DNA of 5,260 nt from assembly GCA_021805485.1 (NCBI GenBank), contig JAJZFF010000559.1, positions 1 to 5,260 of the forward strand, in the 5' to 3' direction. The DNA is from Pseudomonadota bacterium (lineage in GTDB: Bacteria; Pseudomonadota; Alphaproteobacteria; Acetobacterales; Acetobacteraceae). This document shows, in pieces, positions 2-5,260 of this stretch. Numbering within the stretch: the stretch's first letter is position 1; each line of letters begins with the position of its first letter. A program made the position numbers and the translations under genes. The notes under the pieces were generated by a model that saw nothing but the letters and a program-made list of their open reading frames with translations, was not told where the DNA came from and did no database searches.

Positions 2-661
2 GTTCGGCGCGACCTCGCGGCGCTGCGCGCCCGGTGGCGGCGCCGGGCCTTCGCGGCGGACTGGCGCCGGCTCGCGCGCCGGTATCCCGCGCCGGGCAAC
101 CGGGATTTCATCGTCGTCGACATCGCGCGCGAGCGGCTGGACCTGTTTCGCGACGGGCGGTATCGCGCCGGCTGGCGGGTTTCGACCTCCCGCTTCGGGA
201 TCGGCCAGCGCCGCGGCAGCGACCGGACGCCGGTCGGGGTATTCCGCGTCGTCGGCGAACTCGGGCGGGGCGGGCCGGCGGACCAGGTCCTGAATGCCGC
301 GGGCCCCACCGGCCGGTTCGCGAAGCCGGTCCTCGCGCCGGGCCACCTGGCCGCGAGCCGGCTGATCGTCGGACGGATCCTGCTGCTGGAGGGCTTGCAG
401 CCCGGCTGGAACCGGGACGGCGATGTCGACACGCTGGCACGCGATATCTTCATCCACGGAACGGCCAATGTCGGCATGCTCGGCCGGCCGGCGTCGCGGG
501 GCTGCGTGCAGATGGCGCCCGGGGCGGTCATTCGCCTCGCGCGGATGATCCCGCCGGGCGCGCTGGTGATGATCACGCGGGGGGCGGGCAGTCTGCGCCG
601 CATTCCCGGCCCCGGCACGGGGCCGGACAATCTTGATTTTTCAGAAATTGCTAAAAAATGA
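2..661 (+). CDS. L,D-transpeptidase, YkuD catalytic domain (5' partial)
   Basis: The frame is open from the window edge to a TGA at 659-661, giving 219 visible residues; the start codon and any signal peptide lie outside. L,D-transpeptidases use a catalytic cysteine to make or edit peptidoglycan cross-links, or to attach proteins to peptidoglycan, in the periplasm. The YkuD domain begins near visible residue 36 with the strand FIVVDIARERLDLFRDGR. It continues with STSRFGIG (61-68) and SDRTPVGVF (73-81), and ends with the active site: His152 in IFIHGT (codon 455-457) and Cys168 in SRGCVQM (codon 503-505). The 16-residue His-Cys spacing and S-x-G-C signature fit the family; the residue before the Gly is Arg where His is common. 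The 35 residues before the domain are Arg-rich. The last residues (DNLDFSEIAKK) are encoded by unusually AT-rich DNA. The family call is firm; the cellular substrate is unknown. A functional link to the downstream genes is not evident. Confidence 0.9.
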   Translation, partial: VRRDLAALRARWRRRAFAADWRRLARRYPAPGNRDFIVVDIARERLDLFRDGRYRAGWRVSTSRFGIGQRRGSDRTPVGVFRVVGELGRGGPADQVLNAAGPTGRFAKPVLAPGHLAASRLIVGRILLLEGLQPGWNRDGDVDTLARDIFIHGTANVGMLGRPASRGCVQMAPGAVIRLARMIPPGALVMITRGAGSLRRIPGPGTGPDNLDFSEIAKK

Positions 662-1531: not shown

Positions 1532-1744
1532 TTTCTGATCCGCCGGTGCTGGCGCGGCCTCCCGCGGAAGCGATGGGTGCGCAGCCGACCGGGCTGATCG
1601 CGGATCCGCCACGTCGATGACGGTGCGTTTCGGTAGAGGACCGGCCAAGAGACTGCGCCGTCCGCCCCCTGTGCTTCGGCCTCGACGATTCCGATTGACA
1701 GGCGTGGGCGAACAGGCGAGGTTTGGATTGTATTGCATTCCGAT
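1532..1744. other. Non-coding stretch between coq4 and the riboswitch
   Basis: I see no convincing gene here. All forward frames are interrupted or lack family resemblance, and the reverse frames look like shadows of GC-rich DNA. The octamer GATCCGCC occurs at 1537-1544 and again at 1603-1610; the second copy lies in a 10-base palindrome, GCGGATCCGC (1600-1609). No hairpin followed by a T-run is visible, so I cannot point to a rho-independent terminator for coq4. I looked for a relic of a NuoL-like hyfB gene and found no hydrophobic segment in any forward frame. Confidence 0.6.
1695..1723 (+). promoter_or_regulatory. Candidate promoter for the riboswitch leader
   Basis: A perfect -35 hexamer TTGACA lies at 1695-1700. 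With a 17-base spacer the -10 position would be GAGGTT (1718-1723), a poor match to TATAAT. Transcription would then start near 1730, just ahead of the riboswitch, which is the expected geometry. The -35 match may be chance, and an activator-dependent or alternative-sigma promoter remains possible. I found no good -24/-12 (sigma-54) match around TGGATTGTATTGC (1724-1736): the GG-GC spacing is two bases too short. Confidence 0.28.
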
Positions 1745-1795
1745 GCCGGTGATGGAGTTCACCGTGTAACCGCCCGTGGGGCCGATGACTCCTGT
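1745..1795 (+). promoter_or_regulatory. Fluoride riboswitch aptamer (crcB motif)
   Basis: This RNA element binds fluoride through magnesium ions and controls genes in cis. The conserved architecture can be read directly. The first stem is CGGUGA (1747-1752) paired with UCACCG (1759-1764), closing the loop UGGAGU (1753-1758). Next comes the joining segment GUGUAACC, whose conserved AAC is at 1768-1770. The second stem is GCCC (1772-1775) with GGGC (1779-1782), loop GUG. The conserved-type tail CGAUGACUCCUG spans 1783-1794, with C at 1783 where U is commoner. Loop bases GGAGU (1754-1758) are exactly complementary to ACUCC (1788-1792), giving the pseudoknot typical of this class. The pieces GAUGGAGUUC and AUGACUCCU closely resemble fluoride riboswitches I remember from Bacillus and Thermotoga. 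It lies in the leader of the hyfC-like operon on the same strand, ending about 35 bases before the first strong start codon. Identification is by motif reading; a covariance-model search has not been run. Confidence 0.92.
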
Positions 1796-1801
1796 TCATA
1801 T

Positions 1802-1819
1802 CCGCTACAGCGGAGGAGG
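1802..1819 (+). promoter_or_regulatory. Riboswitch expression platform: small hairpin and strong Shine-Dalgarno
   Basis: CCGCT (1802-1806) and AGCGG (1809-1813) form an inverted repeat around AC, and the Shine-Dalgarno GGAGGAGG (1812-1819) overlaps its 3' arm. It lies nine bases before the ATG at 1829. The aptamer strand CUCCU (1789-1793) is complementary to AGGAG (1814-1818). The same CUCC bases take part in the pseudoknot when fluoride is bound. The likely logic is translational: without fluoride the Shine-Dalgarno is masked, and with fluoride it is freed. No U-run suggests a transcription terminator. The mechanism is inferred from base pairing. Confidence 0.6.
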
Positions 1820-1828
1820 ACGGGTGCC

Positions 1829-1891
1829 ATGGTGCGTATTGGCCGGAACTGCCTGCGTTCAACCCGCCAGACAAGTGCGTCGCGATCATGA
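1829..1891 (+). CDS. Putative 20-residue leader peptide coupled to hyfC
   Basis: This short ORF starts at ATG 1829, nine bases after the GGAGGAGG Shine-Dalgarno under riboswitch control. It encodes MVRIGRNCLRSTRQTSASRS and stops at TGA 1889-1891. Its stop overlaps the hyfC start as ATGA (1888-1891), a classic coupling arrangement. The hyfC start itself has no recognisable Shine-Dalgarno in the 20 bases before it, so ribosomes loaded at the leader ORF are the obvious source. The peptide is basic and Ser/Arg-rich, resembles no family I know, and its third-position base use is unlike the neighbouring genes. It is therefore more likely a translation-delivery device than a functional protein. Alternatively, it could be a degraded gene end: the same frame is open back to 1637, but that stretch looks nothing like a protein. 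Confidence 0.5.
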   Translation: MVRIGRNCLRSTRQTSASRS

Positions 1892-2841
1892 CCGCGCGCG
1901 ACGTCGTTCTGCAGTTCTGCCAGGTGACGTTCACGATCGCGGCGGCGCCGTTCATCCAGGGCTGCATCGTCCAGTTCGAGGAGCGCATCCAGCGCGGGCG
2001 CGGGCCGGGGGTGCTGCAGCCCTACCGGGATCTGTGGAAGCTGTTCCACAAGGACATCGTCGTGCCGGAGACCGCCTCCTGGCTGTTCTGGGTAACGCCC
2101 GTCGTCGCCTTCACCTGCATGATGACGGTGCCGATCCTCATTCCGGTGCTGACGAACTTTCCGCTGCCGCTCTCGAACATGGGGGACATTCTCGGCGGCG
2201 GGCTGATCCTGACGCTCGGCTCCTTCATGATCACCCTGGCCGGGCTCGATGCCGGCAGCGCCTATGGCGGGATCGGATCGAGCCGCGCGGCGGTCATCGG
2301 CATTCTCGCGGAGCCGACGCTGATCCTCGTTTTCGTCGGCATCACCCTGTTCGCGCGCTCGATGCTGCCCTTCGTGGTGAACCACCTGCTGGTGGCGAGG
2401 CCGGCGGTCTATCTCGGTCCCGCGCACCTGTTCCTGGTCGCCGCGTTCTTCATCCTGCTGACGGTCGAGACCGACAAGCTGCCGATCCATTCGAGCACGC
2501 ATATCGAGGTCTACATGATCGAGGAGGCGCGGGTGCTCGAATATGCCGGCCCCCTGCACGCCCTGCTCAAATGGGCGTCGATGATGAAGCAGTTCATCCT
2601 CTACACGATCTTCTGCAACGTGCTGACGATGCCGTGGTTCCTCTCCGCGCGCGGGCTGGCGCCGGGCGTGCTCGGCAGTGCCGCCGGCGTGATCGTGAAA
2701 TTCGTCATCGTCGCCGGCGCCATCGTGACGGTCGACACGATCCAGGCGCGGTTGCGCTTCTACCGCTACCAGGAACCGCTCGCGGTTTCGTTCCTGCTGG
2801 CGGTCCTCGCCATCATCGGCACGCAGATCGGACTCGGGTGA
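1888..2841 (+). CDS. hyfC: Hydrogenase-4 component C-like membrane subunit (NuoH/HycD family)
   Basis: A 317-residue, strongly hydrophobic protein of the NuoH/HyfC/HycD family. This subunit anchors the peripheral arm to the membrane arm in complex I and group 4 hydrogenases. Family marks are the first helix followed by RGRGPGVLQPYRDLWKLF (36-53), the segment SSRAAVIGILAEPTL (131-145) with conserved-type Glu142, and the cytoplasmic acidic loop with VETDKLPI (193-200), THIEVYMIEEARVLEYAG (204-221) and KWASMMKQ (228-235). Roughly eight membrane segments can be seen. Length is normal for HyfC. The acidic loop differs somewhat from what I remember of related proteins: His201 stands where Asp is usual after the Pro, and Glu212 where His is common. 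The start ATG overlaps the leader ORF stop; no other standard start exists in this frame after the in-frame stop at 1786-1788. The stop overlaps the next start (TGATG). Whether the partner is a true hydrogenase or an Ehr-type complex is unresolved. Confidence 0.9.
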   Translation: MTARDVVLQFCQVTFTIAAAPFIQGCIVQFEERIQRGRGPGVLQPYRDLWKLFHKDIVVPETASWLFWVTPVVAFTCMMTVPILIPVLTNFPLPLSNMGDILGGGLILTLGSFMITLAGLDAGSAYGGIGSSRAAVIGILAEPTLILVFVGITLFARSMLPFVVNHLLVARPAVYLGPAHLFLVAAFFILLTVETDKLPIHSSTHIEVYMIEEARVLEYAGPLHALLKWASMMKQFILYTIFCNVLTMPWFLSARGLAPGVLGSAAGVIVKFVIVAGAIVTVDTIQARLRFYRYQEPLAVSFLLAVLAIIGTQIGLG

Positions 2842-3522: not shown

Positions 3523-5043
3523 ATGACCGGGATCGCGACATCGGTCCTGATCGGCGCGCCGGCGCTGGCGGTGCTGGCGATGCTGGCCGTGCCGCGGCCG
3601 CGTCTCGCGGAGCGGCTGAACCTCGCCGCGGCCGGGCTCTGCTTCATCGCCGCGGTCGCGATGACGGTTTCCGCCCCCGCCGCCGGGGTCCGCTATCTCG
3701 GGCGCTACCTGATCGTCGATCCGCTCGGCGCCTGGATCATCCTGTGCGCCGCGGTGGTCTACCTGCTCGCCTCGATCCATGCCTGCGGCTACATGCGGAT
3801 GCTCGGCGAGGAGGCGCGGCTGCCGCGGTTCTACCAGCTCTTCGCCCTGTTCGCGCTGACCATCTTCATCGCGCCGCTAATGAACAATCCCGGGCTTTAC
3901 TGGATCGCGATCGAGATGACGACGGTGGTCAGCACCTTCCTCGTCGCGTTCGAGCGGGCGGCGGAGGCGATCGAGGCGGGGTGGAAATACATCATCATCG
4001 TCTCGGCCGGGATCACGCTGGCGCTGCTCGGCACGGTGATCTTCTACTGGGCCGGGACGTTCAGCCTGGGGCCGACCTACGACATGACCTGGCGCGTCCT
4101 GCGGCATGCCGCGCCGCACATGGACCGCGCGCTGCTCGTGCTCGGGTTCCTGCTCGTGCTGGTGGGCTACGGCACCAAGGTCGGGCTGGCGCCGATGCAC
4201 ACCTGGCTGCCGGATGCGCACAGCGAGGGGCCGGCGCCGGTCTCGGCGATGCTCTCCGGCGCGCTGCTGAACGCGGCGATGGCGGGCATCGTGCGCTATC
4301 TCGCGGTGCTGCACCGGGCCGGGCTGTTCATGCTGCCCGACCAGATCCTTGCGGTGTTCGGCACCGCCTCGCTCCTGGTGGCGGCGCTGTTCATCGTGCG
4401 CCAGCGCGGGGTGAAGCGGCTGATGGCGTATTCCAGCGTCGAGCACATGGGCATCGTCGCCCTCGGCTTCGGTTTCGGCGGGCCGTTCGGCGTCGCGGGC
4501 GCGATGTATCACATGCTCAACCACAGCCTGAACAAGTCGCTGATGTTCTTCGGCGCCGGCAACGCGATGCGCAGTTTCGGCACCCGGTCGATGACGCGGA
4601 TCCGCGACTATGCGCGCCACTTTCCGGTCGCCGCAGCACTCTGGCTGGCCGGTGCCGTCGCGATCACCGGCGCGCCGCCCTTCGGCCTGTTCGCCAGCGA
4701 GCTGACCATCCTGCGCGCCGGTTTCCGCGGCGCCGGGCTCTGGGCGGCGATCGTGATGCTGGTTCTGCTGATCCTGATCTTCATCGGCTTCCTCGATCAT
4801 TTTCGCGTCATGTATTTCGAGCCGGCCGGGGATGACGCGCCGAGGCCGGCGCGGCTCGGGGCCTGGACCGTCGCGCCGATGTGGCTCGCGCTGATCCCGT
4901 TGCTGGTGCTGGGCCTGTGGTGGCCGCGCGCGATGTGGCGCGATTTCCAGACGGTCGAACAGGTGATCGAGCGTCCGGCCGCCGCGCCGGCGCCTGCCGC
5001 GCGCGCCTCGGCCCGCATGCCGGATGCGCGGAGGGCGTCGTGA
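3523..5043 (+). CDS. hyfF: Hydrogenase-4 component F-like proton-translocating subunit (NuoN/NuoM/MrpD antiporter family)
   Basis: A 506-residue polytopic protein with the Proton_antipo_M core, about 14 helices, close to the usual HyfF length. Key ion-path residues can be placed: Glu131 in WIAIEMTTVVS, Lys219 in GYGTKVGLAPMHTWLPDAHS (216-235), Lys299 in VKRLMAYSSVEHMG, and His330, His334 and Lys338 in MYHMLNHSLNKSLMFF. Glu393 in GLFASEL takes the place of the acidic residue of the NuoM twelfth helix. Asn250 in LSGALLN sits where NuoM and NuoN have a central lysine; this may be normal for the HyfF branch. The C-terminal tail (about 485-506) is Ala/Pro/Arg-rich and probably exposed. The ATG at 3523 follows the hyfE stop by one base. 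An upstream in-frame GTG at 3490 would add 11 unlikely residues (PCNCGGWW) inside hyfE. It would pump protons or sodium ions, driven by the redox reaction of the peripheral arm. Confidence 0.93.
   Translation: MTGIATSVLIGAPALAVLAMLAVPRPRLAERLNLAAAGLCFIAAVAMTVSAPAAGVRYLGRYLIVDPLGAWIILCAAVVYLLASIHACGYMRMLGEEARLPRFYQLFALFALTIFIAPLMNNPGLYWIAIEMTTVVSTFLVAFERAAEAIEAGWKYIIIVSAGITLALLGTVIFYWAGTFSLGPTYDMTWRVLRHAAPHMDRALLVLGFLLVLVGYGTKVGLAPMHTWLPDAHSEGPAPVSAMLSGALLNAAMAGIVRYLAVLHRAGLFMLPDQILAVFGTASLLVAALFIVRQRGVKRLMAYSSVEHMGIVALGFGFGGPFGVAGAMYHMLNHSLNKSLMFFGAGNAMRSFGTRSMTRIRDYARHFPVAAALWLAGAVAITGAPPFGLFASELTILRAGFRGAGLWAAIVMLVLLILIFIGFLDHFRVMYFEPAGDDAPRPARLGAWTVAPMWLALIPLLVLGLWWPRAMWRDFQTVEQVIERPAAAPAPAARASARMPDARRAS
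5030..5035 (+). promoter_or_regulatory. Shine-Dalgarno for the hyfG-like gene
   Basis: GGAGGG lies inside the last codons of hyfF. It is four bases before the GTG at 5040 and ten bases before the ATG at 5046. The spacing is tight for the GTG and somewhat long for the ATG, so it does not decide the start; the ATG is slightly favoured by spacing and codon, the GTG by the GTGA overlap with the hyfF stop. Confidence 0.5.
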
Positions 5044-5260
5044 ACATGCCGTCGAGGCGCGGCATGGACCCCTCGTCCCTCGAGGCCGCGGCCGGCGCGC
5101 TGGGCGCTGCGGGGGGCCGGATGATCATGGTCTATGCGGCCCCGGAGGCTGACGGGCGGCAGACGCTGCGCTACGTGTCGTCGCGCCCGGGGATCGCCGG
5201 CTTCGAGGTCTGGAGCGTTCCGGCCGGGGGAACGGTGCCGAGCATCGCCACGATCTGGCC
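5040..5260 (+). CDS. hyfG: Hydrogenase-4 component G-like large subunit, N-terminal NuoC-like part (3' partial)
   Basis: The frame is open from GTG 5040 (overlapping the hyfF stop as GTGA) to the window edge, 73 full codons. An ATG two codons in, at 5046, and another at 5064 are alternative starts. The visible chain matches the N-terminal NuoC/30-kDa-like domain of HycE/HyfG proteins: a short variable start, a strand RMIMVYAAPE (27-36), then QTLRYVSSRPG (41-51), FEVWSVPAGG (55-64) and VPSIATIWP (66-74; the last residue is implied by CC), which lines up with the PS-[IL]-A-x-x-W(P) segment just before the family's acidic WxEREx(D/H)xFGI region. That region and the NuoD-like domain with its nickel-ligand CxxC pairs lie beyond the window. 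So it cannot be seen whether this is a functional [NiFe] hydrogenase or an Ehr-type protein lacking the cysteines. It would form part of the cytoplasmic arm docking on HyfC. The call rests partly on operon position. Confidence 0.78.
   Translation, partial: MNMPSRRGMDPSSLEAAAGALGAAGGRMIMVYAAPEADGRQTLRYVSSRPGIAGFEVWSVPAGGTVPSIATIW

What the first reader, a model, noticed from the sequence alone, without database searches (positions are those of the whole stretch)
1745..1795. Fluoride riboswitch heads a hydrogenase-4/formate-hydrogenlyase-like operon
All parts of the crcB-motif aptamer can be read: two stems, the AAC joint, the AUGACUCC tail and the exact GGAGU/ACUCC pseudoknot. The expected targets of this riboswitch are fluoride exporters (CrcB/Fluc, CLC-F); here the next genes encode a complex-I-like membrane module. 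I recall that crcB motifs were noted near formate-hydrogenlyase genes when the class was described, but the role of such complexes in fluoride stress is, to my knowledge, not explained.
Basis: partly seen in the sequence, partly recalled or inferred. Interest (0 to 1): 0.88.

Follow-up and report, generated by a model that had tools for sequence, protein, structure and literature searches.

The report
Fluoride switch on a hydrogenase-like pump
A fluoride-sensing RNA switch stands in front of a membrane pump that databases call a formate hydrogenlyase, but the pump's close relatives have lost the parts that bind nickel, so it is probably a fluoride-stress ion pump and not a hydrogen-making enzyme.

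Summary
The fluoride riboswitch is real: RF01734 at 1739-1801 (+), 48.5 bits, E 1.8e-11. An aptamer of this kind lies upstream of hyfC in 80 of the 80 loci kept from 201 relatives, median gap 107 nt. Among 150 genomes of one family, 6 of 6 orthologous operons carry it against 2 of 95 other large subunits. That 'formate hydrogen lyase' genes follow this motif has been in print since 2010. The label is what fails. In relatives, 0 of 69 large subunits have a first-motif Ni-Fe cysteine, 67 of 67 complete C-termini lack the second CxxC, and 41 of 57 genomes show no HypD. Iron-sulphur motifs (62 of 67) and antiporter-type charged residues remain. It is an energy-converting-hydrogenase-related (Ehr) complex, often among fluoride genes. 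A short leader ORF overlaps the hyfC start (ATGA); masking of its ribosome site by the aptamer's 3' strand is predicted in many leaders but weak in the window and absent in its closest relatives. That the pump energises fluoride export is inference. The window ends before the diagnostic motifs.

The parts
1739..1801 (+). fluoride riboswitch aptamer (RF01734, crcB motif)
   Evidence: cmscan 48.5 bits, E 1.8e-11, model 1-64; own model R1 70.2 bits, built with this sequence among 28
1748..1763 (+). stem P1, GGTG 1748-1751 with CACC 1760-1763
   Evidence: read from sequence and cmscan alignment; 90.1% of cells paired in 53 aptamers, one pair with changes on both sides
1754..1758 (+). 5' pseudoknot strand GGAGT, pairs with 1788-1792
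   Evidence: 53 of 53 aptamers pair, two pairs with changes on both sides
1772..1782 (+). stem P3, GCCC 1772-1775 with GGGC 1779-1782
1788..1792 (+). 3' pseudoknot strand ACTCC; its last two bases also lie in the predicted hairpin that partly masks the ribosome-binding site (possible switching strand)
1812..1820 (+). strong Shine-Dalgarno GGAGGAGGA of the leader ORF (duplex -12.1 kcal/mol with anti-SD, against -0.2 for the region before hyfC)
   Evidence: unpaired probability 0.04 without and 0.47 with the pseudoknot strands held out, but the cost of opening it hardly changes, 9.3 to 9.0 kcal/mol
1829..1891 (+). leader ORF of 20 codons (MVRIGRNCLRSTRQTSASRS); its TGA overlaps the hyfC start codon (ATGA)
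   Evidence: a leader ORF ending near hyfC in 43 of 67 distinct leaders with an SD call, window included; peptide not conserved
1888..2841 (+). HyfC/HycD-like (NuoH-like) membrane subunit, PF00146
2841..3521 (+). HyfE-like membrane subunit
   Evidence: NCBIfam NF008556 4.1e-12, under its curated cut-off; no Pfam match
3523..5043 (+). HyfF-like antiporter-type subunit, PF00361
   Evidence: charged residues invariant in relatives
5043..5260 (+). start of the large subunit (NuoCD/HyfG-like); first 72 codons only, motifs L1 and L2 lie beyond the window
   Evidence: reading frame, no family match of its own; shares GGRMIM-YA...LRYVS...PS-A-IW with L003:13148-14581, compared by eye (sequences)

Best explanation
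A fluoride ON switch controls a nickel-free, hydrogenase-derived ion pump (an Ehr complex). Without fluoride the 3' aptamer strand and the bases after it help to mask the Shine-Dalgarno of a short leader ORF. Mg-bound fluoride stabilises the pseudoknot, frees the site, the leader ORF is translated, and ribosomes ending at ATGA start on hyfC and the rest of hyfC-E-F-G-(H/I)-B. The complex has kept its iron-sulphur wire and antiporter-type arm but lost the Ni-Fe site, so it should pass electrons from a low-potential cytoplasmic donor to an acceptor that is not a proton, and export H+ or Na+. This would counter the acidification and loss of proton-motive force caused by HF and energise CrcB/CLC-F. 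Shown by computation: aptamer, linkage, loss of Ni-Fe ligands in relatives, conserved charged residues, fluoride-gene neighbours. Inferred: direction of switching, coupling, redox partners, physiological role.
For: Aptamer. Linkage: 80 of 80 loci; 6 of 6 orthologues (3 of them also among the 80) against 2 of 95 other large subunits in one family, both exceptions being a second NiFe-less type. Not a hydrogenase: 0 of 69 with a first-motif Cys, 67 of 67 complete C-termini without CxxC in the last 40 residues; HypD in only 16 of 57 operon-bearing genomes. Arm retained: HyfF E131, K155, K219, K298, K338 and E393 in 73 of 73 (their pump role is recalled from NuoM-type subunits). Redox wire: N2-type motif in 62 of 67, ferredoxin and NuoB domains in L003. 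Fluoride context: MutS_V, enolase, DUF190, CLC, CrcB and phosphatase genes follow other switches; Burkholderia and Mycobacterium plasmids. CrcB in 23 of 23 genomes tried, of the 57; in Acidiphilium iwatense the two switches found stand before CrcB and before this operon. Platform: the 3' pseudoknot strand is predicted to pair in the SD region in 38 of 62 leaders, 35 of 44 with ACTCC or ACACC and 3 of 18 with ATGCC.
Against: No expression, binding or phenotype data. The window lacks the diagnostic part of the large subunit and its genome is not held. Switching is the weakest step here: the window's masking hairpin is only modestly better than shuffles (z -1.78, 12 of 200 shuffles as good), the SD opening cost hardly changes (9.3 against 9.0 kcal/mol), and the window's closest relatives L001, L002, L003 and L005 do not pair the 3' pseudoknot strand with the SD (0.0-1.0 expected pairs), three of them having the SD mostly open already (0.64-0.67 unpaired). 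The mean drop in opening cost (11.5 to 6.6) is partly built in, because ten bases are forced open. Leader-ORF coupling exceeds shuffles only moderately (43 of 67 against 0.33) and the leader peptide is not conserved. Some relatives have a good SD of hyfC's own. In L070 a 109-codon ORF lies between aptamer and hyfC. Electron donor and acceptor are unknown. The N2-type motif was not matched in 5 of 67 small subunits, one of them a fragment.
Confidence: 0.5

Rival explanations
1. It is a true formate hydrogenlyase or hydrogenase-4, induced because fluoride blocks enolase and shifts cells to fermentation (the published reading).
For: Sequence kinship: HycE is the best PDB match, E 2.1e-39; sources name several relatives 'formate hydrogenlyase subunit 5'; the 2024 review treats the gene so (PMC11139923, passages seen).
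Against: No first-motif Cys in 69 and no second CxxC in 67 relatives; HypD not found in 41 of 57 genomes; no formate dehydrogenase among the annotated features of two plasmid regions, whose gene tables are incomplete; the one intact-NiFe paralogue read has no switch over the gathering score (L083); the E. coli control genome does not ring for RF01734.
Confidence: 0.03
2. The complex itself moves fluoride: an antiporter-type arm redirected to export F- or HF, driven by redox or by the H+ gradient.
For: Co-regulated with fluoride exporters, kept as a full membrane arm, tightly linked to fluoride switches.
Against: The 23 genomes tried all have CrcB as well; HyfF keeps cation-pump-type Glu and Lys; no fluoride-site signature was looked for.
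Confidence: 0.1
3. The complex is a repair or redox module, for example supplying or disposing of low-potential electrons when fluoride harms metal enzymes or DNA repair; ion pumping is secondary or reversed.
For: MutS_V-type genes follow the operon in L003 and head other switches; the iron-sulphur motif is retained in 62 of 67.
Against: Two antiporter-type subunits kept with near-invariant charged residues argue for coupling.
Confidence: 0.22
4. The switch controls only the leader ORF or a small RNA, or has another platform, and hyf expression is not fluoride dependent through masking of the leader SD.
For: Some relatives have a good SD of hyfC's own (L006, L031, L039); only 43 of 67 called leader ORFs end at hyfC; masking is not predicted in the window's closest relatives.
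Against: All six genes are found in 66 of 80 loci, 13 of the rest running off the contig; almost no SD before the window's hyfC; terminator-like hairpins in 8 of 79 leaders that would stop the whole operon.
Confidence: 0.15

Closest known systems
Fluoride riboswitch (RF01734, crcB motif)
   Same: All stems, the joining AACC and the pseudoknot; 48.5 bits against a cut-off of 34
   Different: Nothing seen in the aptamer; the expression platform here acts, by prediction, on a leader ORF coupled to the first gene
[quoted passage not shown]
   Same: Group-4-like large subunit without Ni/Fe-coordinating residues plus Mrp-type subunits, the definition given in PMC6349859 (passages seen)
   Different: This clade is tied to fluoride switches and fluoride genes; that paper considers formate-dehydrogenase partners, none was seen in the two annotated regions here
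Formate hydrogenlyase / hydrogenase-4 (Hyc/Hyf)
   Same: Membrane arm, fused large subunit; HycE is the best PDB match
   Different: Relatives lack the L1 cysteines, the second CxxC and any C-terminal tail beyond it
Archaeal MBS (sulfane reductase)
   Same: A hydrogenase-derived complex; MBH differs from it by additional cysteines in the [NiFe] motif (PMC12401011 passage)
   Different: Archaeal and sulphur-linked; our invariant C-terminal Cys lies one residue beyond the last ligand position of the intact paralogue L083 and its role is unknown
Fluoride operon of Enterobacter cloacae FRM (PMC5533749)
   Same: One switch over ppaC, uspA, eno, gpmA, crcB; similar genes neighbour our operon
   Different: 'formate' and 'hydrogenlyase' do not occur in its main text; no Ehr genes named in the passages seen

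Membership tests
Fluoride riboswitch RF01734 | covariance score over the gathering cut-off | tested here: met
   48.5 against 34 bits, E 1.8e-11
Fluoride riboswitch RF01734 | P1, P3 and pseudoknot with covariation | tested here: met
   95.5% of cells paired, 44 double changes against shuffled 11.3; pairs with a double change 4 against 3.8, not above shuffles; known structure placed by eye on a MAFFT alignment of 53 of 81 aptamers
Fluoride riboswitch RF01734 | binds fluoride and changes expression | not testable with these tools
   needs in-line probing and a reporter
Group 4 [NiFe] hydrogenase / formate hydrogenlyase | CxxC motif L1 in the large subunit | tested here: not met
   0 of 69 relatives have Cys at either position, 57 are S..G, one further row truncated there; the window itself ends before the motif
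Group 4 [NiFe] hydrogenase / formate hydrogenlyase | C-terminal DPCxxC and cleaved tail | tested here: not met
   67 of 67 complete C-termini end in G-C-(D/A)-R with no CxxC in the last 40 residues; in relatives, not in the window
Group 4 [NiFe] hydrogenase / formate hydrogenlyase | NiFe maturation machinery (HypD) in the genome | tested here: not met
   found in 16, not in 41 of 57 operon-bearing genomes, by my count in 8 of the 22 named-isolate genomes's list; many others are drafts or MAGs; the window's own genome is not held
Group 4 [NiFe] hydrogenase / formate hydrogenlyase | formate dehydrogenase partner gene | tested here: inconclusive
   none among the annotated features of L095 and L096, whose tables are incomplete; not searched in the other loci
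Ehr complex | group-4-like large subunit without Ni/Fe-coordinating residues | tested here: met
   in relatives, not in the window
Ehr complex | Mrp antiporter-like membrane subunits | tested here: met
   PF00361 in the window's HyfF and in HyfB of L003
Ehr complex | couples a redox reaction to charge translocation | not testable with these tools
   residues conserved, function untested
Respiratory complex I | quinone-site Tyr of Nqo4 (role recalled) and NADH module | tested here: not met
   the Tyr of Nqo4 RMDYLHS aligns with Ala in RVSAVGS of L003; no NuoE/F/G-type gene annotated in L095 and L096 (tables incomplete); not searched elsewhere
MBS / Mbx | sulfane or ferredoxin:NADP activity | not tested
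   6u8y_L (MBS by recall) is a weaker match, E 9.5e-21

The most novel reading that the evidence does not exclude
A lineage of nickel-free, hydrogenase-derived pumps has become a dedicated arm of the bacterial fluoride response, spread as part of fluoride islands across proteobacteria and into actinobacteria. 'Formate hydrogenlyase' in the fluoride-riboswitch regulon is then a misannotation, and its real job is a redox-driven ion pump that keeps fluoride export energised. It is switched on through a riboswitch-gated leader ORF coupled to the operon.
Probability: 0.42. Interest if true: 0.8.

Novelty: new variant of a known kind. Interest (0 to 1): 0.62.

Why it matters
A 2024 review lists formate hydrogenlyase among the commonest fluoride-switch genes and sets it beside shifts to anaerobic fermentation (PMC11139923, passages). 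The motif losses and missing HypD oppose that reading and replace it with a testable one: a fluoride-induced, nickel-free ion pump. It would give a bacterial Ehr complex a known inducer and a physiological setting, and offer a handle on why export alone does not explain fluoride tolerance.

Tried and rejected
Own genome search: none held. Consensus promoter and terminator scans of 1530-1900 found nothing. A strict aptamer regex found only 31 of 80 loci because pseudoknot variants escape it; model R1 and RF01734 found the rest. R1 was built from 28 aptamers, the window and 27 of these loci, so those matches are by construction; RF01734 was the independent check (9 of 9 loci; 57 of 57 genomes with at least one match over cut-off, whose match lists were cut short, so not every one of the 80 sites was seen under RF01734). 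A first platform script used the wrong pseudoknot register and was redone (of 79 distinct leaders 7 failed to parse and 10 over 200 nt were left out, leaving 62). In one search the L1 regex matched nothing and it gave two wrong readings; one search replaced it by alignment columns. AlphaFold model of the large subunit: mean pLDDT 73, under 50 in residues 101-160 and 443-478, not used; no fold search was run. Wide Pseudomonadota sample: 3 of 398 genomes at E<=1e-60, one being the centre itself; the other two loci (38% identity) have no switch over the gathering score. The idea that all Ehr complexes are fluoride-linked is rejected: 11 of 11 class C paralogue loci (L084-L094, 11 of the 95 non-orthologous matches, chosen from the best-scoring) show no RF01734 over the gathering score. 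The tree's sister placing of class B rests on long branches. The idea that the retained C-terminal Cys is the fourth Ni-Fe ligand was dropped: in the alignment it sits one residue further on. Baker 2012 is not held and is known to me by recall and through the review. Searches of the held library; none listed a paper that, by title or the parts seen, joins fluoride riboswitches with energy-converting-hydrogenase-related complexes (0 papers). PMC12595759, the only paper with 'fluoride riboswitch' and 'formate hydrogenlyase' or 'hydrogenase', was seen as a listing only and not read. Confidence was lowered slightly on re-checking (best explanation 0.55 to 0.50, novel case 0.45 to 0.42), because masking is not predicted in the window's four closest relatives.

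Full report
What is there. The window holds one Rfam match at E<=1, the fluoride riboswitch RF01734 at 1739-1801 (+), 48.5 bits, E 1.8e-11. Behind it come a 20-codon leader ORF (1829-1891), then HyfC-, HyfE- and HyfF-like genes and the first 72 codons of the large subunit. Upstream lie a YkuD-type and a Coq4-like gene with no evident link to fluoride. DNA similarity to L001 and L002 (77%) begins at base 1742, inside the aptamer; to L003 (81%) it begins at hyfC, base 1888.

Is the link real? A scan with the window's HyfC confirmed 201 relatives and kept the best 80 loci. In all 80 an aptamer lies upstream of hyfC on the same strand: 74 by our model R1 at E<=0.05 and 6 by RF01734 in whole-genome searches (coordinates converted by me), compiled. 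The gap is 63-534 nt, median 107, and 77 of 80 lie within 260 nt; in L070 a 109-codon ORF stands between. R1 was built from 28 aptamers, 27 of them from these loci, so independent weight rests on RF01734: 9 of 9 loci and 57 of 57 operon-bearing genomes with at least one match over cut-off (match lists cut short). A sample of 150 genomes from one family gave 101 large-subunit matches (my count). The 6 orthologues (61% identity or more; one is the query itself and two more hold L033 and L052 of the 80) all have RF01734 about 3.2 kb upstream, while 2 of the 95 others have a match 3.5-3.9 kb upstream, at 36.0 bits (over) and 31.1 bits (under the cut-off). Those two form a second NiFe-less type (class B, L081 and L082). 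In 398 genomes spread over the phylum, 3 match at E<=1e-60: the centre itself and two at 38% identity, whose loci carry no switch over the gathering score. The operon is therefore rare.

What the complex is. All six genes hyfC-hyfE-hyfF-large-small-hyfB are found in 66 of 80 loci; 13 run off the contig end and one, L054, lacks the middle genes; with at least 9.5 kb of room the order holds in 55 of 56. The best PDB match of the large subunit is HycE of formate hydrogenlyase, E 2.1e-39; HycE's RVCGICGFAH aligns with RVSAVGSAAH. Large subunits were found in 70 of 80 loci. By alignment columns 0 of 69 have Cys at either L1 position (57 S..G; one further row is truncated there). All 67 complete C-termini end in G-C-(D/A)-R with no CxxC in the last 40 residues. 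Of the 120 best public homologues 119 read S..G and one was not parsed; 118 of 120 have the G-(C/S)-(D/A)-R end. The sources call several of them formate hydrogenlyase subunit 5 or Ni,Fe-hydrogenase III large subunit. HypD, without which no [NiFe] cofactor is built (recalled), is found in only 16 of 57 operon-bearing genomes; many are drafts, but the 41 misses include 14 of the 22 named-isolate genomes's list, Acidiphilium iwatense and Ancylobacter dichloromethanicus among them. The small subunit keeps an N2-type cysteine motif in 62 of 67 (5 not matched, one a fragment) and, in L003, ferredoxin domains. HyfF keeps E131, K155, K219, K298, K338 and E393 in 73 of 73; that such residues carry ions is recalled from NuoM-type subunits. 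This fits the published definition of Ehr complexes (PMC6349859, passages seen). The window ends before L1 and L2, so for this copy the loss is inferred from orthologues.

Fluoride context. A script found 203 aptamers in the 80 loci (R1: 211, window included) and took the longest ORF behind each. Apart from the operon itself (81 ORFs in two clusters, recognised by eye), clusters were named by Pfam from one representative each: MutS_V (18), enolase (10), DUF190 (10), CLC (10), no family (7), cyclopropane synthase (5), AAA ATPase (5), CrcB (5), MFS (4), histidine phosphatase (3); 35 of 50 clusters are singletons. A Burkholderia cenocepacia plasmid carries 11 RF01734 sites around the operon, with eno, ppa, crcB and CLC genes. 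A Mycobacterium branderi plasmid has a switch, a NUDIX gene and a distant Ehr operon whose large subunit reads ERVEGIAS and ends CYAGVAM, among mismatch-repair, enolase, DUF190 and phosphatase genes. CrcB is present in 23 of 23 genomes tried, of the 57. In Acidiphilium iwatense the search found two switches: one about 320 nt before CrcB, the other before this operon. By contrast 11 of 11 class C Ehr loci read and one intact-NiFe locus of the same family show no switch over the gathering score.

How it may work. The pseudoknot covaries. In 38 of 62 leaders its 3' strand is predicted to pair in the Shine-Dalgarno region: 35 of 44 of the ACTCC or ACACC type, 3 of 18 of the ATGCC type. Holding the pseudoknot strands out lowers the cost of opening that site by at least 1 kcal in 48 of 62 and raises it in 1 (partly built in by the constraint). 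In the window the site GGAGGAGGA is unpaired with probability 0.04 without and 0.47 with the pseudoknot, but the opening cost hardly moves (9.3 to 9.0) and the hairpin's z-score is only -1.78. The window's closest relatives speak against masking: L001, L002, L003 and L005 show 0.0-1.0 expected pairs, and in L001, L002 and L005 the site is about half or more open in both states. The leader ORF stop overlaps the hyfC start as ATGA; hyfC and the next base read NTGA in 61 of 79 distinct leaders. The called leader ORF ends near hyfC in 43 of 67 against 0.33 in shuffles, 12 leaders giving no call. In 31 of 55 short leaders the leader SD is stronger than that of hyfC by 2 kcal or more. The peptide differs between close relatives, so its translation and not its sequence would matter. 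Coupling by overlapping stop and start codons is a known mechanism (PMC6728339, abstract start seen). In 8 of 79 leaders, seven of them Paraburkholderia or Caballeronia, a terminator-like hairpin uses the same strand.

Function. From here it is inference. HF acidifies cells and fluoride export depends on proton-motive force or membrane potential (PMC11139923 passages). A redox-driven pump induced by fluoride would restore that force. The donor and acceptor are unknown; the Cys kept at the C-terminus in 67 of 67, one residue beyond the last ligand position of the intact paralogue L083, may matter.

What is known and what is new. Weinberg 2010 (PMC2864571, crcB passage) already listed formate hydrogen lyase genes behind the motif, and the 2024 review sets them beside fermentation. 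New here, as far as the held library shows, are the evidence that these operons are not [NiFe] hydrogenases, the quantified linkage with paralogue controls, the mycobacterial case, and the leader ORF. Searches joining fluoride switches with hydrogenase or Ehr terms gave nothing that I saw to report this (PMC12595759 was listed and not read); most subscription papers, Baker 2012 among them, are not held.

Noticed in passing
L039 (genome G013, contig C49:15628-71019): Ancylobacter dichloromethanicus has 24 fluoride switches over the genome; 19 of the 20 listed lie on one contig within about 55 kb, on both strands (4 not listed): a fluoride mega-island.
   Followed up: partly
L018:1815-1892 and L045:719-802: Aptamers with a duplicated AACCGC...P3 element between P1 and the 3' pseudoknot strand.
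   Followed up: no
L095:15691-16948: A conjugative Burkholderia cenocepacia plasmid carries an 11-switch fluoride island including this operon.
   Followed up: partly
L096:8404-16458: A Mycobacterium branderi plasmid carries a distant, NiFe-less Ehr operon behind a fluoride switch and a NUDIX gene.
   Followed up: partly
L003:17517-20617: Two tandem MutS domain V proteins follow hyfB in the operon direction; similar genes head separate fluoride switches elsewhere. Function in fluoride stress unknown.
   Followed up: partly
L054:7749-18693: The only locus with room that lacks hyfF, large and small subunit between hyfE and hyfB: a deletion or an assembly join.
   Followed up: no
L084-L094: A second Ehr type in the family (C-terminus C(S/A)YSGHDL in 10 of 11, NAGYSGCDL in L086) without a fluoride switch over the gathering score.
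   Followed up: partly
window 2-661 and 710-1531: YkuD-type L,D-transpeptidase-like gene and a Coq4-like gene upstream, not evidently part of the fluoride unit.
   Followed up: no
leaders of L004, L019, L022, L024, L061: A C-rich run (CCCCCC) shortly after the leader ORF start recurs in several leaders.
   Followed up: no
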